Shown: positions 7,210-63,179 of the stretch, in pieces
Layout: each line of letters begins with the position of its first letter
Numbering within the stretch: position 1 is the stretch's first letter
From: Sclerodactyla briareus
Lineage: Eukaryota > Echinodermata > Holothuroidea > Dendrochirotida > Sclerodactylidae
Assembly (NCBI GenBank): GCA_026419785.1
Contig: JAODTK010002888.1
Location: 310,001-374,000, forward strand
Length of the DNA stretch: 64,000 nucleotides
Reading direction: 5' to 3'
Made by a program: the position numbers and the translations under genes
Notes under the pieces: generated by a model
Seen by the model: only the letters and a program-made list of their open reading frames with translations
What the model was told of the DNA's origin: nothing
Databases searched by the model: none

Positions 7210-8112
7210 CCATGTATAAAGCGCTGTTCATCACACTTGTGCGATACGCATACTACGATAAATTTTTCGGACGGAGTGTTCACACTTGTGCGATAAAATA
7301 TCGTACGATATATTTATCAACTTAGGGTAGTTCCCGTCAGACGTAGAACTGTGTGTCGACCCCTCTGGGAAACTTCCTGCTACCCAACCCGGCCCTCTCA
7401 ACCCACCCCCCTCCCCCGGGCCACTTCCACTACCCACCGCATATCCTCCCTCCTTGGCATGTCACTGATCCTTGGTGGACGGCCGCCGACGCAAAATGAA
7501 CCCCTCCCATTCTTTCATGGCCTGGTCACCTCCTATTGTATATGGTGAGAGCATCATGATGCGAACTAAAAATAATGGTTTCGTAGTCCCCATCATGGCG
7601 GCAAATCGGGCGAGAGCTCACCAGAAGACATGTCTCCCCGTACGTCACTACTCAATACATTCCATCAAACCCCTGATTTTATCAACGAACAAACCCCCAC
7701 TTTTCATTTCACGGCAAACTTCCCCCAATAGCCTATCTGGCGTTCCATACTCTTGCAGAATTGCGCACGTTTATCATTGCATTGCGCATTTTAATCGCAT
7801 CCGATCAATTTATCGAACGATAAAGTTGAAATATTTTTCAACTTGACGTCCGATAAAATTATCGACATTGTTATCGCACAGGTGTGTGAACACTCTACTC
7901 TGAAAATACACTTTTTAACTCGACGGTCCGTAAACTTTTTTGTTCGTATCGTATCCGTAATCGCCCAAGTATGTGACACATTCCCTTCAATGTTAAGGCG
8001 CCACACGGTCCCGATGAAATTATCGTTACGACATTTTCTATGGCACTAAGTGTGATACAAGTCCACTGATAGAATTATCGTACATCGTAATCGCACAGTG
8101 TGGAGCACCCTT
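7210..8112 (-). mobile_element. Nested TIR-type DNA transposon cluster
   Basis: Several copies of one transposon end are nested. Left ends read 'gctgttcatcacacttgtgc' (7222) and 'gagtgttcacacttgtgcga' (7276). Right ends, read on the minus strand, start 'gagtgttcacacacctgtgc' (7893), 'tgtgtcacatacttgggcga' (near 7981) and 'gtgctccacactgtgcgatt' (near 8106). All run into AT-rich palindromic sequence of the TATCGTACGATA type. The core (7276-7893) is an inverted, shorter relative of 59226-60716: both contain 'ctgcaaaagtatggaacgcc'-like DNA and a matching G-rich internal block. The 'GTTCACACTTGTGCG' tip and possible TAA/TTA flanks are compatible with PIF/Harbinger, but that is inference. No transposase could be recognised, so the element is probably non-autonomous. 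Confidence 0.7.
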
Positions 8113-21229: not shown

Positions 21230-22110
21230 CAAGCGGAGAGCCACCATCGCTTGACAGCGTAGGTACAAGGAAATTTTTGTTTTAACCCCCAGACTTGCAG
21301 GAACGGCACTTCCGGGAATAAGGCAGTAACGCACATCCTAAAATTGGCAATAAATTCCGATTTTTATTTCAAGAAACTTCTTGAGGGAAACGAGCGATGT
21401 TTAGTCCGTTGCAAATTTGGCCAACAGTCGGTTGTTGAAGCGTAGGGTACAAGGAAATTTTTAGTTAAACAGACACCCCAGATTGCGGGAAACGGCACTT
21501 CCCGGACCGTATGGAAGTGAACAAAGTCCCTAAAATCGGCAATCAATTTCAAATATTCAATTTAAGAAACGTTCTTGAAGGAACTGACGATGTCTAGTCC
21601 TCACAAATTCCGGGTAACAGCCACCACAGTGGCGCGAGGGTACAAGGAAAATTTTCGTTTAACACCCTCAGATTGAGGGAACGGCATGTCCCGCGCCGTA
21701 TGGCAGTCAGCAACATCCCGGAAATTGGCAATAATTTTCAGAAAATTTATATTCAAGAAACGTTCTTCGAGGAACTGATCGAGGTTTTATTCTTACAATT
21801 TGGGGCCAGCATCAGTGGAGGAGTGGGGGACAAGGGACATGTTTAGCCTACGAATCCCCCAGATTGCGGAAACGGTATTCCATGTATAGGCAGTGAAGCA
21901 ACATCCCAAAATTTACAATACATTCCTGAAATGTATATCTCAAGAAACGCCCTTGAAGAAACTGATCTATGCTTATTCATTACAATTCGCGTCACCATCA
22001 GTTGAAGCGTAACGTACACGAAAATAGTCTTACGACCCCAACCCCCCAGATTGCAGGGAGCGGCACTTCCGTGACTTATGGCAGTAAGCAATCACTGAAA
22101 TTGACAATAA
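21230..22110 (+). repeat. Five-copy ~190-bp tandem array
   Basis: The core 'cccagattgcgggaaacggc' recurs with its AACGGC point at about 21302, 21491, 21680, 21871 and 22059, giving periods of 188-190 bp. Each unit also has 'ggtacaaggaaattttngtt' before the core and 'caagaaacgttcttgaagga' after it. Single, diverged units of this family occur elsewhere: 35.16-35.24 kb, 35.91-35.99 kb inverted, 50.45-50.56, 53.22-53.47, 56.28-56.37 and 56.55-56.59 kb. Confidence 0.85.
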
Positions 22111-22539
22111 TTTCCGAAAGTGATCGATGTTAATCAGTACATTTCTACATCGTGGTCGCCATTCCTACCATAGCCATGTTTTAGAGATCCTTCCATAGAG
22201 GACCCTTCCAATTGGGTTGAGGGCTGCGGCCCGCCAGATTTGAAATTTGCTTGAATATCACACTTCATGAACATGTGTGCAATTTTCGGGCTTGAAAAAA
22301 GAGGATTTGAGCCAGTCAGCAGACAATTAGTCATTTTTACAAGTTTCAATTGATTGTCTCCAAATTTCTCCGTCTCCGAATTTTTCTCTTCCGATCTTCC
22401 GCGCCTGTATAGTGGGCCCCTACTCAATCACGTAAATCTCCATATGGATGTGCACAATCCCCTGTGCCCTGTTGGTTTTCGTTACATATATATAACTTTC
22501 TCTTTATTTGAAAAAACAGCACGCGTCAACTGGCAAAGC
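22111..22539. other. Unassigned stretch between repeats
   Basis: Short frames only. No repeat match was noticed. Confidence 0.45.
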
Positions 22540-23010
22540 CCGTCTGGACAATAGGATCAGAAGTAGACTGAACCGTGTGGTCATGTTAAGAAAATGGGCA
22601 GTTGGATTCCGGCATTGTTGTAGTGGGGAGGAGGGGGGGGGGGGGTGCACAGGAATGTCCCAAACCCAAATTCTCCGTGTGGCTACCCATATGTTCACCA
22701 CAGTTGAAGATGACACGTATGGACGAATATCATAATTGCCAGAATCTGACGAAGTTTATGGTATACTGGGCCTATTGTAGTATCATGTGGCGGAAAAACA
22801 GGACACAGCGCGCGCAAGCGCGCTTTTTGTTGTTGTCATTAATGGCCTTCTTACATAACATTCAAAGCAATCTAATAAAAAATATGATTACCTTTTTTTA
22901 TGGACCTTAATGTACTATTGATTAAGATTTTTTTTCCACCCCATTACTGCAGTCAATATCTGGGGGGGGGGGGGATTTGTTATTATATTCCCACCAAAAA
23001 TTTGGTGCCA
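22540..23010 (+). repeat. Dispersed repeat, copy 1 (poly-G / GCGCGC type)
   Basis: Collinear with 53500-53975 over ~470 bp. Shared landmarks are 'ggatcagaagtagact', 'ttggattccggcattgttgt', a poly-G tract, 'tatgttcaccaca', a GCGCGC(A)AGCGCGC hairpin, 'ggccttct', a second poly-G tract and 'cccaccaaaa'. The ~190-bp repeat family lies upstream of both copies, which suggests the two form one larger element. Confidence 0.75.
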
Positions 23011-34014: not shown

Positions 34015-35504
34015 TCAGTCATTCAGATGAGGGGTTCTACATAAAACGACGAAACTGAGGGTTACTCCTGTATAATCCTCTGGAACAGCAGCGGTTGTCA
34101 CAACCATGGAGGACTTGGAACATGTCCACTATGGAACGCCGAAGTGCGCAAAAATTATTGCGGCTTCACTCGTTTTGATACGTTTAATCTAAGCGGAATA
34201 CGACCTAAGAAGTCATTATTCCCCTATGATTCCAAGCACATAATGAGAAAAGAAAATTGCTCGTTTTATCGCCCAATAAATCGTGGACGAAAAATGATCG
34301 CCGCTTGCGCCAAAATTCAAGGCAAGTCATGGTTATTACCGTCAGGTTTCAGTGGCCGTAATATATGAGTTCCTTAGTCATATATGCACCGTCTTATGGC
34401 CGTAATAACGACTTCTTTTCTCATTATCGTCTATTCTTCGGAGGGACATAATTAATGACTTAGTTGCGTTATCCGCCTATCCCCGTTCATCATAGTGACA
34501 GCTGGTCCTTATTCCTCCTCTCTCCCCAATTCATAATAGACTTAGTTTTCGTTATTTCGGCCTTTAACCCGATTCATAAAAAATTGATTATTACTCCATT
34601 ATTCCGCCCTTCTCGATCCATAATAATGACCGATACTCATTATGTGGCCCCTGAGAACGAGAACGTAGACAGCATAATTAGTTCTTGGTCTTATTCGCTT
34701 ACGCGGGTCGGTTAAGTATGAGCAGCATAAGGACAGCAGTAAGTCCTTATTGCACGTTAAATTGGCGCATTCAAAGAATAGTGCGCTTTCCAAAAATGTG
34801 AAAGCGCTCTCCCGGAATCAGGGTTGCCGCAGTTGGGTTTTCAGCGCCCAATAATGGAAAATGCGTGTTTCGTGTGGAATTTGGCTGCGAAAATTTTGAA
34901 GGAAAAAGCAAAAATCACAATTTGGCTTTATTTGAGTGTTTCTATGCTATTCATAGAGCAAAATTCATGTACGATATCGTTGTCGATTTGGCTTGCGGTA
35001 TGGCTTCTGAGAACCCAGTTACCTCAAGATTATCTCCATGGCGGATCTGATGTAGTAACCTCAGTGGCGGCGGAAAGCCTACAAATGGGGGGGGGGGGAG
35101 GGAAGCAGACCAAACTCGTGATGAATTTGAATGTTGTGTGTTAACTATTGGTTGGCGGGGATCGTACCAGAATTTTGTGTTTTATTAACCTCCCAGATGG
35201 CCGGAAACGGCACTCCTGTAGCGTTGGAGCTATTTGTCCCAGTCATAACACGTCTGCAACATCGTAGTTATTAAATAAAATGTATGTATGAAGAATGATA
35301 ATGCATATCAGAGGGCTGGAGACAGCAAATTCTCGATGATGGAGGAGCCGGGGATAAGGGATGTCACACCTTCGGCCCTCCGCCTCCCGCCCCCCATCTA
35401 AGAAATCGAATTCGCCTCAACGGTGAATTCCATGCCAATGATCGAGACTGAGTAATTAGGTAGTAATTTGAGGCTCACTCAGGTATCCCTTTCCGCCCCC
35501 AGTT

Positions 35505-35600
35505 GGCCATTTCCTACTGTGGTCACGTGGTTAGGGTATCGGGACTTGCAGTTGTTAGGGGTTTAGGTCGACTCCCGTAGTGGGACGAACCAACCTGGGA
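35505..35600 (+). repeat. tRNA-derived SINE-like sequence at palindrome centre
   Basis: An A-box-like 'cacgtggttagggtatcggg', then 'acttgcagt', then a B-box-like AGGTCGACTCC with near-normal spacing, followed by 'gggacgaacc'. This matches the head of tRNA-derived SINEs. The stems do not form a good tRNA. Confidence 0.45.
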
Positions 35601-36664
35601 AGATTAAAGGTGTTAACACTTTGGGTCCTCGAATTACATTACGAACGTTTAAAAGACAACAAAGTGGGACAAATTGGTGTCTTTAAACGTACGTAATAAT
35701 TTATAACATAAAAACAAAGCCGAAATCGATTTTCTTAGAATGGGGGGGGGGGGCGGAGGGTACGAGGTGTGAATCTCTTTACCCGGGTCTCCCTCAGCGG
35801 AAATTGCTGGCTCCAAGCCCATCTGATAAGCATTATCATTCTTCATACATACATTTATTAATAAACTACGATTTTGCAGACAGACCCCAGTTTTATGACT
35901 GGGTACAATAGCTCAAATTCGATGGGAAGTGCCGTTTCCGGCATCTGGGAGGTTTATGAAAAACCCAAAATGTCCTTGTACACTCTACGCCAACTGATGG
36001 TGGGCGCTCCGCCTAGATATTAAAACAACACAAACAATTCATGACCAATTTGGGTCTGCGTTTCCCCCCCCCCCCCTCCCCCTCCAAAATGTGGAGGCTT
36101 CCGCGCCACTGAAGGTGACTACACCAGATTCATGGACATGGAGAGAATCTGAGTAAACTGGGTCTGCCAGACCAGACACGACAGCCCAGAATAGACAACG
36201 AATGGAAATGAAATATTGCTAGGCATTGATAGCAAAGAAAAGAAGACACTCAAATATAAGGCCCCAAATTGTGATTTTTGCATTTCCTCACATTTTCCAG
36301 CAAAATGCCACACTAAACGCAAATTTTCCATTCTTGGGTAGCGAAACACCAGACGGCACCCTGATTTGAAAATGGAGCAGTTGAAAAAAAAATCTCTTCA
36401 CCTCCTCTTTCATTCACGGGAGAGCGCTTTAATTGTGGAAGAGAGCGCAAACTATTTATTGGAAGGGCGCCAATTTTCATTTGCAATAAGGGACTATACT
36501 CCTAGTCATTATGCAAGCCTCACTTCAGTGCCGACACGCGTACGCGGAATAACGACCTAGAACTAAATTATGCTGTCTACGTTCCAGGCCACATAATGAG
36601 TATAATCGAGTCATTATATGGATCTAGAAGGGCGGAATAATGGAGTAATTAAGTCCTTGTTAAT

Positions 36665-37634
36665 AACGGAACAATGTCAATGGCCAATTCGTACTTTTGC
36701 GTTCAATGGGCTCCTACAGTTAACAAAAATTGCCGCCAAACTGTAAACAAATCTCCGGATATAGCCACCTTTTAGTGTTTGTATATTAAAAAAGACCGTC
36801 GGGATATGAAATATAATACATTGATCTATATCACAAGCTATTAATCCTCCTAAAATCACAGTATCGTCAATTACTGGCCATTAATTTGACAACGATCCGT
36901 GGCGTTTTGAAAATTAGGCTCGCTTGAACCCCCGAGCCGCAGGTAAATTTGATTGCAACTTATAGGCCTCTCTATATTTCAAGTTAACTTCGTTATTGTG
37001 AAGAATTCGGTGACATAAAAGTATGACATGCACACAATAGGAAATGTTAGGTAACATTGAACATATATGTGATGAACATAGCTAATAACTTGATAATATT
37101 CAAGATTTGCATGCGATGAGCGCCGAATTAAATTATGACCAAAGATCATTTAGGCAACCCCAGCACATGGGACGCCGTTGGAAATTTCTGAGTGCGATTC
37201 TATTCGATTTTATGATGGACCTAAAATGCCGTCTGTTCCATTGTCCAATGCAATAAGTTTTACCCTAGGCAGTTAAAACACAAAGGGCGCTCTATAGAAC
37301 AGTTAAACTGGATCAATGGACTAGGGAGTTTCCAATGATCGCATTCTTGTACACCACACTGCATGTATTGTGAAATTTACGATTCCCCATTGAGAATTCA
37401 TTCGAAATAAATTTTTTCAGTCGAAAAACGCCGTCGGTTCCTGGAGTAATATCGCTTCGAATTGACATGATGAGAAAGGTGGAAGATCCTCTTTAAGTTA
37501 TTGAATAAAACGGAGGGATAGCTAGCAGCGTCCTGATTATTGTAATCAAAGAAACTTTGTTCGTAAAAAGAGGGAATTTACACACTGACCATTACGTTGG
37601 TTTAGCCAACAGCAAAAGCGCGGTTAGTTCCGTT
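36665..37634. mobile_element. ~970-bp insertion in right palindrome arm
   Basis: This block has no partner in the left arm. Its left side (36600-36660) pairs with about 34560-34610 and its right side (37605-37705) pairs with about 34503-34575, so it interrupts otherwise paired DNA. It begins AACGGAAC and ends GTTCCGTT, a possible 8-bp terminal inverted repeat. No coding frame was recognised. Confidence 0.5.
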
Positions 37635-38108
37635 AGGGATCGGGATAGGCAGATTAACGAGAAACTAAGTCATTATGATGAATTGATGAGAGGAGGAAAA
37701 GGACCAGCTAATCATTATGATGAACGGTGATCGGCGGGGTGCGGTGTGTAACGAGCAACTAAGTCATTATTTGCCATTTTGAAATAGACGAATAATGAGA
37801 AAAGAAGTCGTTATTACGGCATCCAGACGTTGCAATAATGAACTAAGGAAATCATTATTACCGGACTGGAAAAAACTGACGGGTACTACATGATTGCCTT
37901 GGAATTTGGCGACAAAACGGCGAATCCATTTTTCGTCCACCGATGTTTATTGGCGAAGAAACGAGCAATTTTCTCATTAGGTTGCTTGGAACATAGGTGG
38001 AATAATGAATTCTAGGTCGTTATTCCGCCTAAGATTCACTGGATTAGAACGAGTAAAGCCAGCATATTTTTTTGCGCATTCGGCGTTCAATAGTCTACCA
38101 CATTGGCT

Positions 38109-42879: not shown

Positions 42880-43560
42880 ACAGAGTCGGGAGCCCGGGGG
42901 GTCAGCCTCGTCTGGAGAGGTAACCATTTGAGCCATACAGCAGGGACAAACGCTAATGGCCTGCAAGTGAAATGGTGTTCTGGCACGTCCCTTCTGGTGG
43001 GTGTGGTGGTGAGGGCCATAAAAAAAGGCCCAAAACTTAGCTAGCTTAGCTCCCTCGGTACCCTGCAGGAATCTAACGGGGCCCAAATGTCTCCAGTATC
43101 CCATGAACCTGAATGGACCCGTGACAGACTTTTAGTTGGTGGAGTGGGCCCTCCAACGCCATAACTGGGGCCCAAATATGAGCTAGCTTAGGCTCTGAGG
43201 TACTAGTTGGAACAAATGGAAAATGGTCATGACACTCCGCAGCATCACAAATGGGGAACCAATGACAGACTTTCAATGTGGTTGGGTTGGGTGCTGCCAA
43301 CGCCATCAAGATATCCCCACCCCTGCGCCCTACAGCTACCTAGTTAGCCTCGTGATGTAACCAGTTGAAACAAGTAAGAAATGATCGTGACACTCCAAGC
43401 TATCACAAATGACCAATGACCGACATTTTCAATTTGTGGTTTGGTGCGCCAGACTCCATACAATCCCCACCCTTCAGCTAACCTAGGTACTCGTAAGGTA
43501 ACCAGTTGAGACAAAGTATAAATGTTCGTGACACTCCCCACTTCACAAATGCACAGTTTG
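42880..43560 (-). repeat. Left arm ~145-bp tandem units
   Basis: Five units, with 'ggtaacca'-like starts near 42918, 43057, 43199, 43356 and 43497. They are reverse-complement relatives of the array at 49000-49800. Confidence 0.8.
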
Positions 43561-43589
43561 AAAACGTAATAGTAATAGGGAGGGGGTGG

Positions 43590-44450
43590 GGGGGGGGTTT
43601 GGCGGTCCCATCTAGTGTTGCGCTTTGACGGCGAACAGGCCTTATCGTTATGGGAGGGCTACCTGAGATCCTGAATTCGACTCAGCGGATTTTGGGCCGG
43701 GCTCTTGGGCAAAACCACTTTAATAATTCGCGGCCTTGGTGACGTGGATTGCCGTTTTTGAGTTGAGGTCGCGTGGTGTTTGTCAAAACGTCTTGAACTA
43801 AAATGGCTTAACCAGTCTGACATGTGTCTTTGAGTAAGTCTCTCTTACACATAGTAGTTTTGGCATTCAAGGTTCATGCGCCTGTTGATCAACGGCGTCC
43901 TTCGTGATATTGTGTATCAGGCAAAAATAATAGCGACTGAACAATTTGATCCCTTGTAGTTGGCTCTCGGGTTTGTAAGCTGAGTTGGACAGGTGATGCA
44001 AACAACGCTTCAGAGTGGTATCGTGTCTTCTGGCAAATATCAATGTATTTGTAATGCACTTTTGACGGCCGATTGAACAATTTGACCATTTTTTGTTGGG
44101 CTTTTGGGGTTTGTTAACACGCTTGGTGGTAATTCAAGGTATTCTCACATCGTTTGCCACTTGACAGTCCGGCAGTGAATGGTTTAAACGGGCGGGTATA
44201 TAACCCCCTATTTTTAACATGTTCACGCTTGTTCACCTTTTTGTGACTCGTGACTGGTATGATGAGGTATGAAAGCGAGTGAGACGGGGTAGCGCGCTTT
44301 TAGACGCCCGACGGAATATCGTCTTGACGCGACAACGGTATCGCCACGATATATCGTCACAATGATATCGAGCGACATCTATGTAACCCTAGTGTCGAAA
44401 TATCGCGAGACGACATCGCCGCCAGGCCCCACATGCGTCCCGTGATCCTG
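43590..44450 (-). repeat. Left inner arm of composite element
   Basis: Pairs with the reverse complement of about 47350-48520. 'gacggaatatcg..cacgatatatcgtcac' at 44308-44372 mirrors 47380-47450. 'aacaatttgatc' units occur near 43950 and 44080. The part at 43640-43740 ('gaattcgactc..gggcaaaaccacttt') has a weak SINE-like look but is shared with the right arm. Confidence 0.65.
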
Positions 44451-44559
44451 CCCTCTCTGGGTGGAGTTAGGCATGTTAGAGCAGTTGTGTTCACGTGAGT
44501 GAGCCTTCGTTGGCTTGAGACTTTGGAACCATACTAAAGTTTCTGCCCTCGGTATTATT

Positions 44560-46960
44560 TGGGGCTTCATCAGTGGTCATCGTCTTGCGGCGTGTGTCCT
44601 CTGGTCTCTGTTCTTGTACAACTTTTGAGCATTTTTGTTTATAGTGCTGCGATCAACTCCTCGAGAAGAGTACGTCCCTTCCTTCTCTGTTTTTTCTTGT
44701 GCATGCCCGTGTGGAAATCATGCCCGTGTAGAAATCTGGATTAACGAGTAAATCTCTGGATTTTGTGCCCTTTTGTAGGCAATTATAGGCTTTGGGGAAA
44801 CAGTTGCGATAGTTCTGGGTGACCGTTTATAAAGTGCCAATGCTTAGTTAAGGACTCTTTTAGGTCCCTGGTTTTGACATTGGGGGGGGGGGTAAAGGTT
44901 AGTTTGAACCCCAGTGGTGGTTCTGATTGTGGGCGTGCCGTGCCGTTTGTGCGGTCCTCATGCTGATAGATTTGGATACGGATACCACCTCTCCTTACGT
45001 GTAGTTACGGAGCAAAAGTTTTTTCTGTGTAATTGTTTTTTTTCTCGATGAAGTCGGCGCTGTCTGCCTCTTGTTGCATAGCGTGCATACCTTAGAACTT
45101 CCCCTTTGATAAAGCCATTTGAAGTGGCTTGGGGATGAGCTTAATTGCGATCTAAATATGGGTAGGTTTCCGTGTGCTTGGAATATAGATTCTTGTATCT
45201 GGACAGCCGTTTTGACGGAATTGCCTCCCTTGAAAATTGTTAGATCGGGGTATGTGACTTCAGTATCAGAAATTCCTGCGTGAACCAATGAGTGGGGTGT
45301 ATACGTTTATACGTTCCACCATGGCGTTCAGTTCATCTTCGTTCCAACCCCTGGTCAAAAGCAAAAAAACAAGTAGGTCCATCTTCGGGGGTCCGGTACC
45401 TTAGGGCCAGTGTTGTAGTGGTGGGGTTTGGTTTTGATGAGATGATTGGATGTCTCTAGTTTTTGTGCATAACAATGTCGCAGATCTCAGAGGACGCTTG
45501 ACTGCCCCATTGCGCAACAACCATTTTTTTGTCTATAATTGGCGTGTTGATTCAAAGCGTTGCGTGAAATTATAAGATCATGAGTTTGGCGCATGATGTG
45601 GACGATATTTTCGGTATGAGTCGTAATGTCCTCATGTGTCGAGAGCCTCATCATTGGCGTGTTGGTGACATTGATATGACATCCAGAGTAGCGATACATT
45701 AACTGGTCATTTCAACCCTGCGTAGTGTAGGGTGATTTTGTGTCTTCCACATAGCGTTCCTTGTCCTTATTACTATTGGAAGGAGGAAATAATCCCCAGA
45801 GGCTGAGATTGGCTCTGTTGGGGACCCGATACCGCCTATGATAGTTCTGCCTGCAAATTTTTGAGTTTGCTGGAGGTGCTTTGTGCACCTTAGGCAAGAG
45901 ACGTATATCACGGCGTCGGTCACGTTGGTGGATTTAGTTAGTTGAATGTCTCTTTCTCTTTCGTCCTATTTCTTTGTTGAGAGCATGTTTAAAGCGGTTT
46001 TGAACACCCGTCCGTGGGGCCTTTGGTTTATGGTCGCTCGGTAAACCCGTTCGTGATTACAGCTTTTCAGCTGCTTCGATCTCTGTTTGATAATCTGAGC
46101 GATTGAGTATGGCTTGCCTCTTCCTTTGTCGAAGCTTCACCGCAAATGGAGTAATCCGTTCCTAATGGTATTCAGAGCGATGCGTTCTGCTTTCTGGGTA
46201 TTGTTGCGTGCATTCTCAATAGGATGCTAGCCATCTCAGCCTTTGTTGCCTCCACAGTATCTTCTCAAGTTCTGGTTTAAAGCCTGGGGACCATGTGGAT
46301 TGCATGCGATCTTTGCGTGTTCGCTGCTTTTTTATTATGTCGCATGACTAACCGAAGGCGCATTGTTCTTGTGCGTTCCTTTATGGAGGGAAACATGCGT
46401 CGCTCGGTTATCTAGTGTCCATGATGAACTTTAACCCACCTAGGCGATAACCTCTGATATTGTTGGAGGGCGGTCTGATAGGTTTCTGACGTACTCTTTG
46501 AGTTATTTTTGCCTCATTTTGCAGGTTTTGTTGTGGCTACGTGTAGCCCCGCTCCCTGAGAGGTTGATATAACGATGTACGGTTATTTTAATATTAATTT
46601 TACCCGCTCTGTTAAATTTCCGTTTTTGGTTAGACGGATCGTGTTATTCTCTACTCTGACAGTAAAGAAATGGACACGGACACAGGCTTGTTTGAGAGAA
46701 CTTGGGCTGATGCAACCCTTTCTGGTGTCTTGTGGTGCCCTAAGAAGAGCCGTTTGATCACAGAAAAGGTCTGGGCCTATCTGCATTTGGATTTGTAACG
46801 CTTAGCTCCTGCCGACTTCTTCTGTGAGGTGTCTCTTTCCCCCCCGTTCGTTCTTCTCCGCATAAGCTTCTGTAGCGACGGCTGGATTCGACACGTTTGT
46901 CCTCGTAGGACTAGATTCTCTGGTGAGCCCTGTTGTGTTGTTTCCTGGAAGCTGTCTTTG
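44560..46960 (-). pseudogene. Penelope-like element reverse transcriptase, frame-broken
   Basis: Reading 46960 to 44560 on the minus strand across frames gives ordered Penelope-like signatures. NLSDRPPTISEVIAWVGLKF-like sequence is near 46480, then WSPGFKPELEKIL near 46290. LPKVHKAPPANSK-like sequence follows near 45890, then RTIIGGIGSPTEPIS (about 45800-45850) and ATLDVISM..TNTPNDEAL (about 45640-45690). Next are VAQWGSQASSEICDIVMHKL near 45480, ISDTEVTYPDLTIFKGG near 45250 and VKTRDLKESLTKHWHF near 44870. IIAYKRAQN..RDLLVNPDF ends near 44720. This is the family's usual order. At least six frameshifts interrupt it. The YxDD box expected near 45390 is not readable, and no GIY-YIG endonuclease follows. 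Non-functional as written. Confidence 0.85.
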
Positions 46961-47349
46961 TACCCGCTTCGCACTGACGTGAGAGCTCTCCGCGCCAGGA
47001 TCTGGACTAGGCGAGGTTCTGCCCGACGGAGTGACGAGTCCCCAGACCTCGTCAGTCCCTCGTCTGTCCCTCGTCAGAGCCGTAGTGCCCCTTGGGAGTG
47101 TTTATAACCCTTTTCACCCGAAGGTAGTTTAGGGTGTATCCTTCCGACTCCTGACGTCGAGTTACTCTCAAGCCTCTTTGTTAATAAAATACTCTTCTCC
47201 TGAAGGGCGTAGGGGTCGTCGACGTGGCTCCGTATTTTCTGGTACGAGACGTTGGATACGGCCTGGACATTTTTTGTGAGTCTCAAGCCAGCAAAGGCTC
47301 TTAAACGTCCAACATACGCTCCTAGCTGCTATTCGCTAGTGAGGGGCAG

Positions 47350-48340
47350 TGGGACACGGTAGCGCACTCGTGGCTTGCCGCGATACCGTCTCGCGATGTA
47401 TCGAATTGTGGTTGCATAGATATCATTGTGACGATATACCGTACGATATCAAATCGCATTGGGACGGTTTTCGCCGGCAAGGTCATAGCAGCGTCCCGGT
47501 CGTTTTACTAGCTGGTCATACCTCCTCTGCCAGTCCCAGCCACACAAAGGCTACGCAAGTGAACAACTTGTTTTTCAAATCGAAGTTATTACCTTCCGAT
47601 TACCAATTTCACTGAACGGGACTGTCACTATTGCAGGAGCATGAGCATCTCATGAACATACCAAAGTCCTTTTTCAAACAACCCAGCGTTTAAAGTTTTA
47701 GCCTGATTATGGCATCCAAGGTGGTCATTGTTTTCATTCGGCCAATATACAACATATATTTGTCCGATTACGATCCACTCCTAAACTTTACATACTCCTG
47801 TAACTCGCGTGATCAAGTCCGTTAACAAAAAGCTAAAAGTGATCAAATTGTTCAATCAGCTATATAGTATTTTGCATGATTAGCAATATCACGGACGGAC
47901 TGTTGCTATTGACCAGAGGCGCATGGCGTCTTGGCAACTCCCAAAAGTCGTTCTACCCATCGTTAACAGTTTTTCAACCTAGAATTGTGGTTTCCGATGG
48001 TCAATTGTTCAGTCGCATTTTATAAAAACGCTTTTTTTGCCAGAACTTTAACGATACCACTCACGAACCTTTAAACATGCCTGCTCAACTTTACTTACTT
48101 GATTGACCTGGGCTAATAAAGCTCACAAGTGAATCAAATTGTTCCAATGGGCTCCTGCTAATTTTAGCCTGACTGACAATATCACAGAACGGGTCATGGT
48201 AATTGACAGGCGCTGGCACTCATGAAGCACAACACGTGTTAGACTTACTAAAGTCATCTATCCGACTTAGTCAAGCCAATTCCGACATTGTTCAATTTGT
48301 GTGACGAACACCACACATTTGCACTCAAAACGGCAACTCA
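47350..48340 (+). repeat. Right inner arm with ~285-bp tandem units
   Basis: 'cactgaacgggactgtcact', 'cacggacggactgttgctat' and 'cacagaacgggtcatggtaa' mark three units at about 47610, 47890 and 48183. Each has 'gatcaaattgttcaat'-like DNA upstream of the next. Its proximal end, 'catagatatcattgtgacga', mirrors the left inner arm. Confidence 0.75.
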
Positions 48341-48643
48341 CGGCCCTACGCCACAAATATTGAAGTGGGTTTTTTGCCCAATCCAGGCCGCAAAATCCGT
48401 TGAGTCGGATTCCAGGATGCTCAGGTAGCCTCCCATAACAATTAAGTCCTGTTCGCTCAGGTCAAAGCGCAACACTAGATGGTGACCGTCAACCCCCCTT
48501 ACTACAAGGATTCCCACTTTGTGATCAGGGAATTGCTTCCAGCGTAGCAAAAAAACATGTAGTGGGGGTTGTGTGGTTGTCACATCTGCACTTGAAACGA
48601 TCTGATTGTGATTATTCACGATTACTATGACAAAAGTAACCAC
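48338..48643 (-). CDS. 101-codon frame in right arm
   Basis: An open frame reading VTTTQPPLHVFLLRWKQFPD, then VRGVDGHHLVLRFDLSEQDL and SILESDSTDFAAWIGQ. It has a protein-like composition and no stops. The matching part of the left arm (43590-43740) keeps the DNA similarity but not the frame. It could be a fragment of an element-encoded protein. No domain recognised. Confidence 0.25.
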   Translation of the reverse strand: MVTFVIVIVNNHNQIVSSADVTTTQPPLHVFLLRWKQFPDHKVGILVVRGVDGHHLVLRFDLSEQDLIVMGGYLSILESDSTDFAAWIGQKTHFNICGVGP

Positions 48644-48985
48644 TTTATACCCTTTTCAACTGGTAAGCTTCATGCCTGCTGCCAGTCCTAATATAGGCGC
48701 CAACTATTCTTATATTTTACACAGCTGCCTTATTTGGCAATCTCTTATAAGATTATGTGAACCCTTCTTACCTGCTCTTTGCGTTTGGCACAGTGGCAAA
48801 ACTGGTTGGATCATGAGATTACCTAGTACAGTTTTGTCCAATCCAATACACTTAAAATTTTTTTTAGTTATCATAACAGTTATAGACCGGATGTACTGCC
48901 GTTTTAACACCCATAAATTTCTTTCTGTCCTGTTTGAGGGGTTTTCTAACATGCGGGGATTTCAGCTAGTGGCCTCATAAAAACT
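48644..48985. other. Right-arm segment without left-arm partner
   Basis: This ~340-bp stretch interrupts the pairing between 43560-43590 and its mirror, so it is an insertion in the right arm or a deletion in the left. Its 117-codon plus frame (48627-48980) is not recognised. Confidence 0.4.
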
Positions 48986-48989
48986 CTAT

Positions 48990-49800
48990 TGAACATACGG
49001 TGATTTCCAGTGGTTACCTTACGGCTAACCTAATAGGTTAGACTCTATGGTGAGGGATATTGTATGGCGGTCTGGCACCTCCTACCAAACCAACTTAAAA
49101 AGTCTGTCATTGGCACTTGGGATAGCTGGATGGTCACGAACATGTTCAACTTTGTTACAGCTGGTTACCTTACGAAGCTAACCTAGGTTCGCTGTAGGGT
49201 GGGGGTATTGTATGTGCGTCTGGCGCACCCAACCCACCACTTAAAATGTCGTTCATTGGTCATTTGTGATAGCTTGGAGTGTAACGAATATTTGTCTACT
49301 TTGTTTCAATCAACTGGTTTACCACCCCCCGAGCTAACCTAGTGTTAGCTATAAGGGGTGGGGTATTGTAATGGCGTTGCGCCAAGCCCACCACTTAAAA
49401 TGTTCCTGTCAGTGGTCATTTGTTGAATAGCTGGGAGTTAACGAACATTTTTCTTTGTTTCAACTGGTTACCTCCTGAGCTAAGCTAGCTCACTTTTTGG
49501 GCCCCAGTTAATGACGTCTGGCGGGCCCACCCAACCAACTAAATCTCTGTCACCGGGTCATGGTCCATGTTTCATTAGATATGCTGAACATTTTGCCGTA
49601 GATTTCCCGCGTTTACCTCGGGAGCTAAGCTAGCCTAATTTTTGGGCCTTTTGTTATGGCCCTCACCACCCCCCCACCAGAAGGGTGCGTGCCAGACAAC
49701 CATTTCATTGAAAGGGCCAAGCTTTTGTCACTGCTGTGGGCTTACAATTGGTTACCCCTCCAGCTAGGCTGACCCCCCGGGGCTCCCGGTCAACTCCAAC
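48990..49800 (+). repeat. Right arm ~150-bp tandem units
   Basis: Six diverged units, with 'tggttacct(t)ac' starts at about 49012, 49163, 49317, 49466, 49612 and 49752. Each carries 'gagctaacctag' and 'gtcattggtcatttgtga'-like blocks. Confidence 0.85.
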
Positions 49801-53229: not shown

Positions 53230-53480
53230 CGCGTAGCGTACAAAGATATTTTTCGTTTTACAGACCCCCCAGAGTGGCAGAAACGGGCACTGTCTGGGTC
53301 ATAGGCCAGTGAGCAACATTCTTGAAGGAACGATCAAATGTTTATGTATGATATTCGCGAACAATTCGGCCACCTCGGTTGTGACGCGGTCGGCACAGAA
53401 AAAAACAGTTTAAACAGACCTCCCAGGTTGCAGAAACGGCCATTTCCCGGACCGCATTTTCTATTAAAAACGGCACGTCA
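53210..53480 (+). repeat. Two units of ~190-bp repeat family
   Basis: 'gcgtagcgtacaaagatatt' and 'cccccagagtggcagaaacg' (about 53265-53287), then 'cctcccaggttgcagaaacg' (about 53422-53441). This is the same core as the 21.2-kb array. Confidence 0.7.
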
Positions 53481-53499
53481 GGCTGGCCAACAATCTGAA

Positions 53500-53975
53500 C
53501 AATACAGTGGATCAGAAGTAGACTAAACTGGGTTTCCAGTGTTGAGAAATGGCATATTTGGATTCCGGCATTGTTGTAGTGGGGGGGGGAGGGGGGGGTG
53601 TACAACATGAATAAGTCCTAAACCGTGGCTCTACCCTATATGTTCACCACAATTGAATGACACGTAAAGGACAAAAATCTACTTTGCCAGAATCTTACAA
53701 AGTTATTGTAACACGTGTGCCTACTGTATTATACATTAACGGATAGATAGGATAAGCGCGCGCAGCGCGATTTCTTTTTTGCATTTCGGCCTTCTCAACA
53801 TAAAATTTAAGCAACCAATAAGAAATATGGAGTTAGACTTTGTGTTATGACCGTACTGTACATATGCTTATAGGATTTTTTCGCCAGCCGCCCTAAAAAA
53901 TATTTTGTGGGGGGGGGGGTATTGATATTCTGTCCCCCACCAAAATATTGGGGGGGTGGCGGATGTGCCACCCGT
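53500..53975 (+). repeat. Dispersed repeat, copy 2 (poly-G / GCGCGC type)
   Basis: Collinear with 22540-23010. The poly-G tract, hairpin GCGCGCAGCGCG (about 53757-53769), a second poly-G tract (53909-53919) and 'cccaccaaaatattgg' appear in the same order. Confidence 0.75.
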
Positions 53976-54125
53976 CCCCCCGTGAATCGCCACCCATTCC
54001 AGTGACTTTATGATATTCCATAGCCCAGCCTGAGGTTTCTTGAATAAAACTATATAAGACCTTGCATGAACAGATCCACTTATGGCAATAAATCCGAGTA
54101 AGCCGAAGATAGACGATGACCTCCA

Positions 54126-54760
54126 TCAGTCCACATTTTCGTCCAACACCTGAAAAGAACCCACAGCACCACTTTCCAGGATACAGTGGATACCACCAAA
54201 GTACGGGATTTTTGTTCTTAGTCCCTTAATACCTTGAAAACCCAACGGATTGACGCTTCGACTAGCAGACTTGCCACCAGCCCGATCATCTCTACAGGAA
54301 CCTTCCACACAGCTGCTTCAATGTCCCATATGGAGGTTCGGCTTGTACGCAAGTACACAGCCCTGCAGGGAGCCTCACATCGTTACCTGTCCGTCCATCT
54401 TCCTTGGCAGCTGGGCAGAGAACGACGACAGACGTACCATACTGAACACGTTATATGGGCCGCTTAGCTGCATCTATATGTAATACGTTCTTACGTAATG
54501 TAATATCGACAATGTTTGGGACGGGGCACTCGAACTGAAGGCAATTGTGCAACGTGCCACCCTCTCATTTGCTGATCACTCGTTTTTACCCTAGTACGCA
54601 ATGGAATGGTCCATTACTCGATGATTCACAATGGTTAGAAATATTCCCGCCTGTAATTGTTTCCTAGTCTCATGAATCAGTCCAGCGATATAGACACCCG
54701 AGGAAACTGCGCCCCCTTTTTATAAAGGATTGCTATTTCCTTATTAACATAGTAGTAGAG
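54126..54760 (+). repeat. ~0.64-kb dispersed repeat, direct copy
   Basis: Matches the reverse complement of 61560-62275. Landmarks are 'tttcgtccaacacctgaaaa', 'gaaaacccaacggattgacg', 'caggaaccttccacacag', 'ccttggcagctgggcag' and the 'gtacgcaatggaatggtcca' block. A related tail copy is at 55540-55700. Confidence 0.75.
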
Positions 54761-59225: not shown

Positions 59226-60716
59226 GGGCTGTTACACTTGTGCGATACGATACCGTACGATATCGATAACTTTTAATCGGCGTCGAGTTTGAAAATATTT
59301 CACTTTTATCGTACGATAAATTTTATTTCGGATGCCGATAAATTGCGTAATGCAGTGATAAACTTGCGCAATTCTGCAAAAGTATGGAACGCCAAACATG
59401 CCATCGGGGAGTTTTGGCGTGAACAGTGGGTTTTAGTGATAATATCAGGGGTTTAGATGAAGGTATTGGGTCGGACGTATCCGGGGAAGTCCTCGTCGGC
59501 CTCTGATTGAGCGTCTGGGGCGCCCATTGGCCCGCCATGCAAGGGATCCTACGAAACCATTATTTCAGTTCGAATACATGAATGCCCTCCCCATTACAAT
59601 AGTAGCGTGACCATGTGGTATGGGGGGGGGTGTTTCGTCGGGGTCCACCAATTATCATGTGATATGCAAAGGCAAATTGTGTGTCTGTTAGTGAGTGGCG
59701 GGGAGGGTTCTGTTGCTGTTGAGAGGGCATAGGTAGGAGGGAGCTTCTGGAGGGGGTTATCCACAGCCTGACGGTCTTGACGGGAACTTTCTCCGAACCT
59801 CCTATCCTAAACCAAGCTCCAATTGCCAGCTCAATTGGACTGAATTGACTCAATTGACGAATGCTTTCTTGGCAACCTCACTTCGCCGATATTATTGATA
59901 CCAATGCTAATTGAGACTAGGTGTCAAACGAAGGGGTATGCGGGGATGGGTTAGGTCAGCTGCCTGATGCGTGATCGTCAATTGCTCTGCCTTGGCATAT
60001 GTCGTCGCCTCCGGTGGAACGATCCGACCACCGCGTTCCTTTTTCACTAGAGCCCCTGGGTTCAGGGCGTCCTCCGGGCTGGCCAAGTTAGGTCGGATGG
60101 TTGACGCAACTGCGCGGGTACCCCTCAGTAAAGGGGGGGGGGAGGGACAGGCTCAGCCTTGTCACTTGCTCACGGTACCTCAGGAATGTGGGGGACGGGA
60201 CAGGCTCAGCCTTGTCACTTCTCAGAGAGGTTGGGTGATTGGAAACCGGCGGGTGGTTCCAAGCTAAGTTCCCTCCAGCTAACTGCCGCTCTCATGATTG
60301 ATTGTGCTTTGGGCGAATGATCTGAGGAAATTAATGTATGGATTAAGGGTCAGTCTTTGTCGGAGAAAACAGTTCAATCAGATGCTCGGGCCTATTTGTG
60401 CGCGTGATGTCTCCCTGGATAGTAAAAATGTTGTAACTGTTGTTGTTTTGCTTAAAAATGGTGGATAAACACTATTATTTCCTGCCTCCTACAAGTACTG
60501 CGAAAGGACCCAGCTTCGATTTCTGTCGACCCTGCAGGATATTTTTCACCGCCATAACGACAAAGGGACAACTTGTGCTTTTTTCCCACTAAAATCCTAT
60601 CACTTCCTTCTCCGTTATGTATGGGGCCGAGACGTCCGATCAAAATTTCGTACGGCATTTTTAACGCACAAGTGAAACACATCCATCGTATAATATCGCA
60701 CAAGTGTGCACACGCT
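59226..60716. mobile_element. TIR-type DNA transposon, ~1.5 kb
   Basis: Left end: 'gggctgttacacttgtgcga' followed by 'taccgtacgatatcgataa'. Right end: 'cgtataatatcgcacaagtg' with a second, inner 'gcacaagtg' end ~30 bp before it. The first ~330 bp and the block at 59600-59800 are similar to the reverse complement of 7340-7893 ('ttctgcaaaagtatggaacg', 'gacgggaacttt', 'ggtttcgtag'). The rest of the interior has no counterpart there. A minus frame starting MAGQWAPQTLNQRPTRTSPD (59538) corresponds to MAANRARAH.. in the other copy, perhaps the start of an element protein. No transposase catalytic region was recognised. PIF/Harbinger affinity is inferred only from the tip sequence. Confidence 0.65.
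60140..60222 (+). repeat. ~54-bp direct repeat
   Basis: 'gacaggctcagccttgtcac' occurs at about 60146 and 60199, separated by 53-54 bp. Confidence 0.85.
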
Positions 60717-61559: not shown

Positions 61560-62275
61560 CGAAACATCACGTCTGGAATAAATTGTTACCATTGTAAATC
61601 GCGGCTGATGGACTATTCCATTGTATACTTAGGTGAAACGCGTGATCACGGGAAGAGCCCTGATGGGGCGCTGTTTGCCGTATTGCCTCCAGAAGTCCGG
61701 TCTATCTAAATAGAGGGCTTTGATTGCCTCTAGGTGCGATTCCCCGTCTTTCACAGTGATTATCACTTCACTGTAAAGAACATTATCAGATGTATTACCT
61801 GTGAAGCGCTTTGAAGTCCAAGTCTTTCGGCCTGGAAGGCGCTATACAAGAACGAAAATTTATCCTTATACTTTTGTTATCATCTCTTTTATATCCGAAA
61901 TTAACGTTATTACAAGATTATATGCAGCTGAGCCAGCCAGACTAACACGTTCGTCAGTATGTACGTCCGTTCATTGCTGCCAGCTGCCAAGGCAGATGAC
62001 GGCAGGTCCGACGCGAGGTTCCCTGCATGGCTGGTACTTTGAGGACAAGGCTGAACCTCCATGAGACATTGACGCAGTTGTGTGGGAAGGTTCCTGTATC
62101 AATCATCCAGAGATGTTCTGGTCCGGTGGCGAGTCCTGCTCGTCGAAGCGTAATCCGTTGGGTTTTCAAGTGTCAGGAACTAAGAAAAAAATCCATTCCT
62201 TTGGTGGTGGTATCCCTATCCTTTGACAGTGGTTTTTGGGTCTTTTCAGGTGTTGGGCGAAACGTGGACTGAGGG
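61560..62275 (-). repeat. ~0.7-kb dispersed repeat, inverted copy
   Basis: Reverse-complement relative of 54126-54760. It carries 'ccattgtatacttaggtgaa', 'gctgccagctgccaaggcag', 'gggaaggttcctgtatcaat', 'cgtaatccgttgggttttca' and 'tcttttcaggtgttgggcga'. Confidence 0.75.
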
Positions 62276-63179
62276 GTCACTTCGTCCCTCCTCGGTCTAT
62301 CCTCGGATTTTTGCCATAAGTTGGCTCTTTCATGCAAGTCTATGTTAGTAGACGCCTCAGACTGGCTTATGGAGTCATAAAGTCACCTGTAATGATGTGA
62401 AATAGATAACTGAGCAGAGGAACCAAACTTCCGTATGTGGCTGCTCCATCAATTGGTGGCTCCCGCCTTGCCTTATTGAGGTGTTGACGCTCGCTTTTTC
62501 GGGGCTGACGCGAGCCTGGATCCTCGTTCTTCACCTCACTCCGTATAGAATCCTCGGCTAACCGTTGGGCAGGACCATGTACCCGTCAGTTTCCTCAAGG
62601 ACGGCGGAGTAGGCAGTTGATGAATCTACTTGTTGTGTTCGCGATCGAAAACTTTGCGATTTTCGGCCATATGCCGGCATATTGCGGGTGACTCCTATCC
62701 TGCCCGCCCGTTAGAAGGACGCCCCCAATGGCCGGCGCCGCTTCGCGGGTACCCTCAAAGAGTGGGCAATGCGTCTAGCTGCCCTCCGGGCATGTATTCC
62801 CTTCCCCCGAGTGAGTGGGTGAGTGAGTGAGTGAGGAAGGGGGGGGGGGGGGTGAGTGGAGTAAAAAGGAGTAGAGTGTATAATGGCCACAGAGATACTC
62901 AGCTACTAATATCAAATCTCCTTAACAGGGAGTACAATTAACCCTATTGTTTCTCGTGTGGACTGTACCTGGGTCCATTTTTATGAAAAAAATAGTAAAT
63001 TGTGAAACAAATGATACGTTGGCTACTACTAATGAAATGTGACTCGATAACTCGACTTATTGGATGGCTAAACCCTCCTTTTCGGTATATTAGTTCCCGA
63101 TCATAGTAACATGAGCCATATTTCGTTGAAAGTAAGCAAATGTTATGCAGAGTCGTGAGAGGGTCAAAGTCTGCCAATC
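62276..63179. other. Unassigned stretch
   Basis: Only a (GTGA)n / poly-G tract (about 62812-62856) stands out. A GC-rich patch with 'cggccatatgccggcatatt' lies near 62665. Confidence 0.5.
62812..62856. repeat. (GTGA)n and poly-G
   Basis: Six or more GTGA units followed by a 14-bp G run. Confidence 0.85.

What the first reader, a model, noticed from the sequence alone, without database searches (positions are those of the whole stretch)
42880..49800. 6.9-kb inverted-repeat element with a Penelope-like reverse transcriptase in its loop
Two arms (about 1.5 and 2.4 kb) mirror each other block by block and are themselves made of ~150-bp and ~285-bp tandem arrays. The 3-kb loop encodes ordered Penelope-like RT motifs. 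Foldback/Galileo-type DNA elements have such arms; Penelope-like elements normally have short terminal or tandem repeats. This combination is unusual: a foldback that captured a retroelement, or a Penelope-like element with extreme inverted terminal arrays.
Basis: partly seen in the sequence, partly recalled or inferred. Interest (0 to 1): 0.8.

Follow-up and report, generated by a model that had tools for sequence, protein, structure and literature searches.

The report
Foldback transposon carrying a Penelope-like retroelement
In an animal-type genome, a DNA transposon with long mirror-image ends took in a reverse-transcriptase element that lacks its own DNA-cutting enzyme, and the fused element spread as one unit to many sites; both halves are known kinds, but the fused, moving unit is unusual.

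Summary
The inverted repeat is real and belongs to a family. Window 42887-49788 is one copy of a composite whose unique right-hand spacer occurs at 39 sites. The outer arms (42887-43552, 49004-49788) are foldback-type: about 140 bp of unique end plus tandem repeats of 142-156 bp, equal left and right when inserted, with TA just outside 24 of 28 recognisable ends. Inside lies a Penelope-like element (PLE), 43588-47278 on the minus strand, then a second, head-on, 5'-truncated PLE copy (47279-48506); so the inner parts of the 'arms' are PLE 3' regions. This PLE belongs to a branch with YRDD in place of YIDD and no detectable GIY-YIG endonuclease; its frame is broken in 20 of 20 copies framed. Both PLE-foldback junctions recur in the composite ends scored (17 and 12) and in none of five other PLE ends. 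PLEs also occur alone (L041, L046) or in other arms (L045), and a different PLE sits in the same arms (L028). Best reading: a foldback transposon captured a PLE once and spread with it as cargo, moved by a transposase from elsewhere. Neither that transposase nor a clean empty site was found.

The parts
42887..43552 (+). left outer arm: foldback-type terminal inverted repeat, unique end (about 42887-43026) then tandem units of about 142 bp
   Evidence: end motif CGGGAGCCC
43553..43587 (.). left junction: foldback sequence ending in a G-run that abuts the PLE 3' end
   Evidence: same junction at 17 composite ends; letters
43588..44638 (-). PLE 3' region (the inner left 'arm')
   Evidence: common alignment start 43585-43590 in L041, L045, L046; 3' end motif
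44639..46665 (-). broken PLE reverse transcriptase gene (RT and thumb, no GIY-YIG found); start approximate
46666..47278 (-). PLE 5' region; upper limit from the end of the L046 alignment (47266) and the start of the inverted copy (47279)
47279..48506 (+). second PLE copy, head-on and 5'-truncated, reduced to its 3' region (the inner right 'arm')
48507..49003 (.). right spacer, present once per element, probably part of the foldback's original middle (inferred)
   Evidence: 39 sites; junctions
49004..49788 (-). right outer arm: foldback-type terminal inverted repeat, tandem units of about 150 bp then unique end (about 49649-49788)
   Evidence: end

Best explanation
A foldback-type DNA transposon, with long tandemly repeated terminal inverted repeats and TA at its target, was entered by a Penelope-like retroelement that lacks an endonuclease domain and that came as, or became, a head-on pair. 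The fused element then spread as one unit, handled at its foldback ends by a TA-preferring transposase supplied from elsewhere (Tc1/mariner-like in its target), with the reverse transcriptase as cargo. Shown: the anatomy, the fixed junctions, the many sites, TA beside the ends, both parts occurring apart, arms equal at insertion. Inferred: DNA-mediated movement, the trans-acting transposase, TA as a duplication, the order of events.
For: Same junctions in the composite ends scored (17 left, 12 right) and in none of 5 other PLE ends; spanning alignments at 11-13 of 20 loci for three junctions. 39 sites with the spacer. TA within 5 nt of 24 of 28 recognisable outer ends, against 24% for random 5-mers. 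Outer 280 bp differ by 0.180 within copies and 0.174-0.177 between copies, so both arms were equal when copies were made. Two unrelated inverted-repeat elements, window 34128-38094 and L045, also have TA outside both ends. PLE apart from these arms: L041, L046, L045. Same arms with another PLE: L028. The majority over copies of the RT region is itself broken up by frame changes and has 7 stops in 615 codon positions, which suits cargo.
Against: No transposase with these ends was found; only one long loop (C2327) was looked at for one, by ORF lists. The empty-site search did not complete (9 tries), so TA may belong to the element rather than being duplicated. The window's own two ends lack TA. 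RT was found in 16 of 20 arm-selected loci, so it is kept more often than mere cargo might be. The frame changes in the majority sequence may come from misaligned decayed copies.
Confidence: 0.72

Rival explanations
1. The composite is a true retroelement: its RT copies the whole arm-loop-arm RNA, the inverted arms priming synthesis and keeping both ends equal, and the DNA joins at TA-rich breaks.
For: RT or loop DNA kept in most arm-selected loci; arm likeness falls from the ends inward; head-on PLE pairs are read as self-priming in rotifers (PMC3846280, passages).
Against: Copies end at the foldback ends beside TA, not at the PLE 3' end; the PLE makes 5'-truncated copies from its own 3' end without the arms (L041, L045); the majority RT is broken.
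Confidence: 0.13
2. The sites are segmental or satellite-like duplications of one nested insertion, not transposition.
For: Some local repetition: two left ends at C3147, a partial tandem in L044, mirrored spacers at C464.
Against: Spread over many contigs with copies ending at the same outer motif beside unlike flanks; L021 holds sequence like both flanks of the L022 site, right flank by eye after a gap of some 36 bp.
Confidence: 0.05
3. Assembly artefact or chance nesting.
For: Long inverted repeats are hard to assemble; no reads were available.
Against: Same order and junctions on many contigs, each copy with its own changes.
Confidence: 0.01

Closest known systems
Foldback transposons (Tetris, Galileo; Drosophila FB and sea urchin TU recalled)
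   Same: Long terminal inverted repeats with internal tandem repeats; Tetris has up to 1,735-bp arms with about 220-bp units and seems non-autonomous (PMC4079207, abstract and passages).
   Different: Carries a PLE; [quoted passage not shown] no transposase found.
Penelope-like elements with inverted pLTRs (Adineta vaga)
   Same: PLE gene; head-on inverted copies; 5' truncation; ability to carry other DNA between repeats (PMC3846280, passages).
   Different: pLTRs there about 180-220 bp and duplications of 8-10 bp in the cases seen; here no GIY-YIG, YRDD box, C-run 3' end, and spread through foreign outer arms.
Endonuclease-deficient PLEs Athena and Coprina (recalled; a paper title seen in a reference list; paper not held)
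   Same: PLE reverse transcriptase without GIY-YIG.
   Different: Those are telomere-associated; the window copy lies at about 353-360 kb of its contig beside ordinary repeats; telomere linkage was not systematically tested.
KolobokP composite-like DNA transposons (PMC9587614, title and abstract start only)
   Same: DNA transposon with a foreign enzyme gene.
   Different: There a homing endonuclease beside a transposase of its own; here an RT and no transposase found.

Membership tests
Penelope-like elements (the loop) | RT homologous to PLE RTs over N-terminal part, RT and thumb | tested here: met
   P0001 matches GIY-YIG-bearing P0034-P0036 and P0038 at 32% over most of its length
Penelope-like elements (the loop) | C-terminal GIY-YIG endonuclease | tested here: not met
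   Pfam found it in 5 distant relatives (4 of 5 below cut-off) and not in the 10 YRDD-branch proteins scanned; best tblastn E in window plus 25 loci 0.59 (the RT control was weak, 2-10 of 26). Endonuclease-less PLEs are known (recalled), so this does not expel it
Penelope-like elements (the loop) | partial tandem or inverted copies | tested here: met
   L046 head-on pair; L043, L044 tandem
Penelope-like elements (the loop) | hammerhead ribozyme in pLTR (not universal) | tested here: not met
   Rfam, window and 14 loci at gathering: 0; 4 loci at E <= 1: 3 weak matches, none a hammerhead
Foldback transposons (outer arms) | long terminal inverted repeats with internal tandem repeats and a middle domain | tested here: met
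Foldback transposons (outer arms) | many copies bounded by the same ends | tested here: met
Galileo / P superfamily | P-type transposase and 7-8-bp target duplications (recalled) | tested here: inconclusive
   no 7-8-bp duplication seen by eye in the flanks of 9 copies; transposase not searched by profile
Tc1/mariner (as engine) | TA target duplication | tested here: inconclusive
   TA beside 24 of 28 ends; duplication not proved, empty-site search unanswered
Tc1/mariner (as engine) | DDE/D transposase | not tested
   no profile search made; none noted among ORFs listed for C2327
Athena/Coprina | telomere association | tested here: inconclusive
   window copy is far inside its contig; no systematic test

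The most novel reading that the evidence does not exclude
Endonuclease-less YRDD PLEs make a living by landing in the loops of foldback elements: foldback hairpins break, free 3' ends (often G-runs) prime the RT on the C-run at the 3' end of the PLE RNA, and the PLE then rides the foldback. Three apparently independent events were met: the composite founder, L028 (other PLE, same arms) and L045 (same PLE, other arms). This would be a standing partnership between a retroelement without an endonuclease and a DNA transposon without a transposase.
Probability: 0.17. Interest if true: 0.8.

Novelty: new variant of a known kind. Interest (0 to 1): 0.52.

Why it matters
It shows a retroelement spread as cargo of a DNA transposon, with fixed junctions at many sites, and it points to a PLE branch without an endonuclease, which makes the question of how such an RT finds DNA ends testable. 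It also warns that long inverted repeats around an RT need not be that RT's own ends.

Tried and rejected
Rejected: a PLE with extreme inverted repeats of its own; chance nesting; an endonuclease elsewhere in the loop (with a weak control); a transposase in the longest loop seen, C2327, which holds other inserts, among them two like-oriented repeats of about 1.35 kb, and no RT. L039 looked like an empty foldback but is a cut composite.

Led nowhere: Pfam on single ORF pieces of the loop (one match below cut-off), PDB (none), IMG/VR with P0001 (none confirmed), COX1 in the assembly to name the species (0 matches). Codon-position counts within the family were spoiled by frame shifts and that script stopped with an error after printing its main counts. 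A fuzzy junction scan timed out (replaced). The left junction gave 0 of 20 spanning alignments with short queries, put down to the G-run. Flank homologues of L035 (window 40.8-41.4 kb) and L025 settled nothing. Nine literature searches listed no paper whose title or abstract start describes a PLE inside a foldback; only listings and some passages of four papers were seen.

Full report
What is there. The window lies at C2145:310001-374000 of an unnamed assembly of 319.5 Mb in 3171 contigs. Self-comparison shows inverted arms from 42887 and 49788 inward. The minus strand of the loop encodes a broken reverse transcriptase; a read-through query matched nine proteins, the best P0001 (672 aa) at E 1.3e-55. 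The window frames follow P0001 from KRKFN near 46625 to its ending (window ELIAAL, P0001 ALIAAL), with the stop at 44641-44639 (read by eye), so the gene is complete in extent though broken.

A family, not one locus. An arm query gave 130 matches with 40 of 112 candidates scored; the outer end gave 40 matches with 40 of 83 scored; the right spacer, seen once per element, gave 41 matches, which I count as 39 sites, with 40 of 43 candidates scored. Not all 39 were read. I fetched 20 arm-selected stretches from 18 sites. An RT match was found in 16 of the 20, in L028 only a remnant. Of the other four, L026 and L027 are two ends of one element whose middle holds other inserts, L039 is a cut composite, and L040 has loop DNA, with an RT match further along the same contig (C2972). 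The window element aligns to several loci straight through arm-loop junctions (for example L030 over 44547-49788, L032 over 43278-48844). Spanning alignments: PLE 5' side to inverted copy 13, inverted copy to spacer 11, spacer to right arm 13 of 20 loci (L029 and L030 overlap); left junction 0 of 20, where the G-run breaks alignments of short queries.

Two modules. The PLE 3' end reads CTAGATGGTGACCGTCAAC(n)TTACT, with variation. In composites one of two sequences follows: the left one at 16 of 16 ends on the RT-3' side plus L027 (side unlabelled), the right one at 11 of 11 on the other side plus L026; 5 of 5 ends of other PLEs (L041, L042, L045, two of L046) have neither. Scored there were 34 of the 35 ends printed; one L026 end that showed no PLE end was left out. 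The two reference strings were read off these same copies by eye, and the window's own left end passes only narrowly (16 against a background maximum of 14). I read this as one founding fusion followed by spread. L046 is a head-on pair of PLEs without the foldback arms: one reaches window 47266, the other is 5'-truncated; they are 79% alike over 2621 columns. The window's inner right arm fits the same plan with the second copy cut down to its 3' region.

Modules apart. L041 carries a 5'-truncated PLE inside another repeat whose homologue lies in this window (22814-21274); 108 bp of the homologue are missing at the site and no duplication is seen. L045 carries a 5'-truncated PLE of the window type between different inverted arms (80% alike over 439 columns), with TA outside both. 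L028 has the window's outer arms around a different, 5'-truncated PLE (83% to L042 over 980 columns; 66% to the window over 197). Of the five loci picked by RT alone (L041-L045) one, L044, carries the window-type left arm and PLE, partly in tandem, with an outer end at C739:138728 and a spacer at C739:150012.

Ends and age. Of 32 outer ends, 28 had a recognisable end and 24 of these had TA within 5 nt outside, against 24% for random 5-mers; outside the TA only an A/T bias remains. The four without TA include both ends of the window copy. Outer 280 bp: mean difference 0.180 within copies (11 pairs), 0.174 between copies on the same side and 0.177 on different sides (26 ends). Outer part of the inner arms: 0.268 within, 0.209 same side, 0.268 other side; innermost part: 0.373, 0.212, 0.384 (L041 and L045 left out). 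So at the time of spread the outer arms were equal, while the two PLE copies differed by about 6% at their 3' ends and 17% further in. That does not fit one self-primed event just before the spread; repair between arms or two separate PLE arrivals could explain it, and I cannot choose.

The RT branch. P0001 has 47 relatives at E <= 1e-20, itself included (7994 candidates scored). The nearer ones have YRDD at the catalytic site and end soon after the thumb. Distant ones have YIDD, YLDD, YVDD or YMDD where a box was printed, and five of six scanned have a GIY-YIG match, four of those below Pfam's cut-off. In a tree of 36 proteins all 20 YRDD rows fall in a 23-row branch with support 100/99; three rows in it lack the motif, so the label needs three changes. 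Named members come from Holothuria, Apostichopus, Amphiura, Patiria and Ptychodera, which suggests, but does not show, an echinoderm or relative as host. In this genome 70 of 71 RT matches hold stops; the one without is short (66 of 536 candidates scored).

How it works. I think the outer ends do the moving: copies begin and end there, the ends bear TA, and both sides are alike at insertion. The RT looks like cargo, since the majority over copies is itself broken by frame changes, though misalignment of decayed copies may add to that. Yet the majority codons agree with P0001 at 379 of 615 positions with 7 stops, so the founder was not far from an intact gene. The engine is unknown. L021 holds sequence like both flanks of the L022 site (left by alignment, right by eye after a gap of some 36 bp), which shows insertion but does not settle the target duplication.

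Known and new. Foldbacks with tandem repeats in their arms (PMC4079207, abstract and passages) and PLEs with inverted pLTRs read as self-priming (PMC3846280, passages) are known, as are PLEs carrying other DNA between pLTRs. A PLE protein that nicks AT-rich DNA with its GIY-YIG domain has been assayed (PMC11167929, passages). None of the nine literature listings shows a PLE carried by a foldback; subscription journals are mostly absent from that library.

Noticed in passing
window 34128-38094: A second long inverted-repeat element (arms 71-77% alike) with unrelated ends (TGGAACGCCGAATGCG), TA outside both ends and no PLE match: another foldback-like family.
   Followed up: partly
window 21251-23005 and 53466-53951: Copies of a repeat with tandem units of about 184-190 bp; in L041 a PLE is inserted in a copy of it.
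   Followed up: partly
L044 2749-4571 and 5662-7531: Partial direct repeat, 91% alike, of the PLE and inner arm, as PLE tandems elsewhere.
   Followed up: no
G000 C464 5179-9448: Two spacers and two outer ends in mirror order: perhaps two composites back to back.
   Followed up: no
G000 C2145:82142-88514: A second likely composite on the window's own contig: inner arm, RT match and spacer.
   Followed up: no
window 53995-54476 with 61919-62394; 7452-7871 with 59257-59672: Further inverted repeat pairs, 74-76% alike; ends printed, not analysed.
   Followed up: no
L046 1337-7929: Head-on PLE pair with a C-run and TTACT or TTTAC at both outer ends and no clear target duplication.
   Followed up: partly
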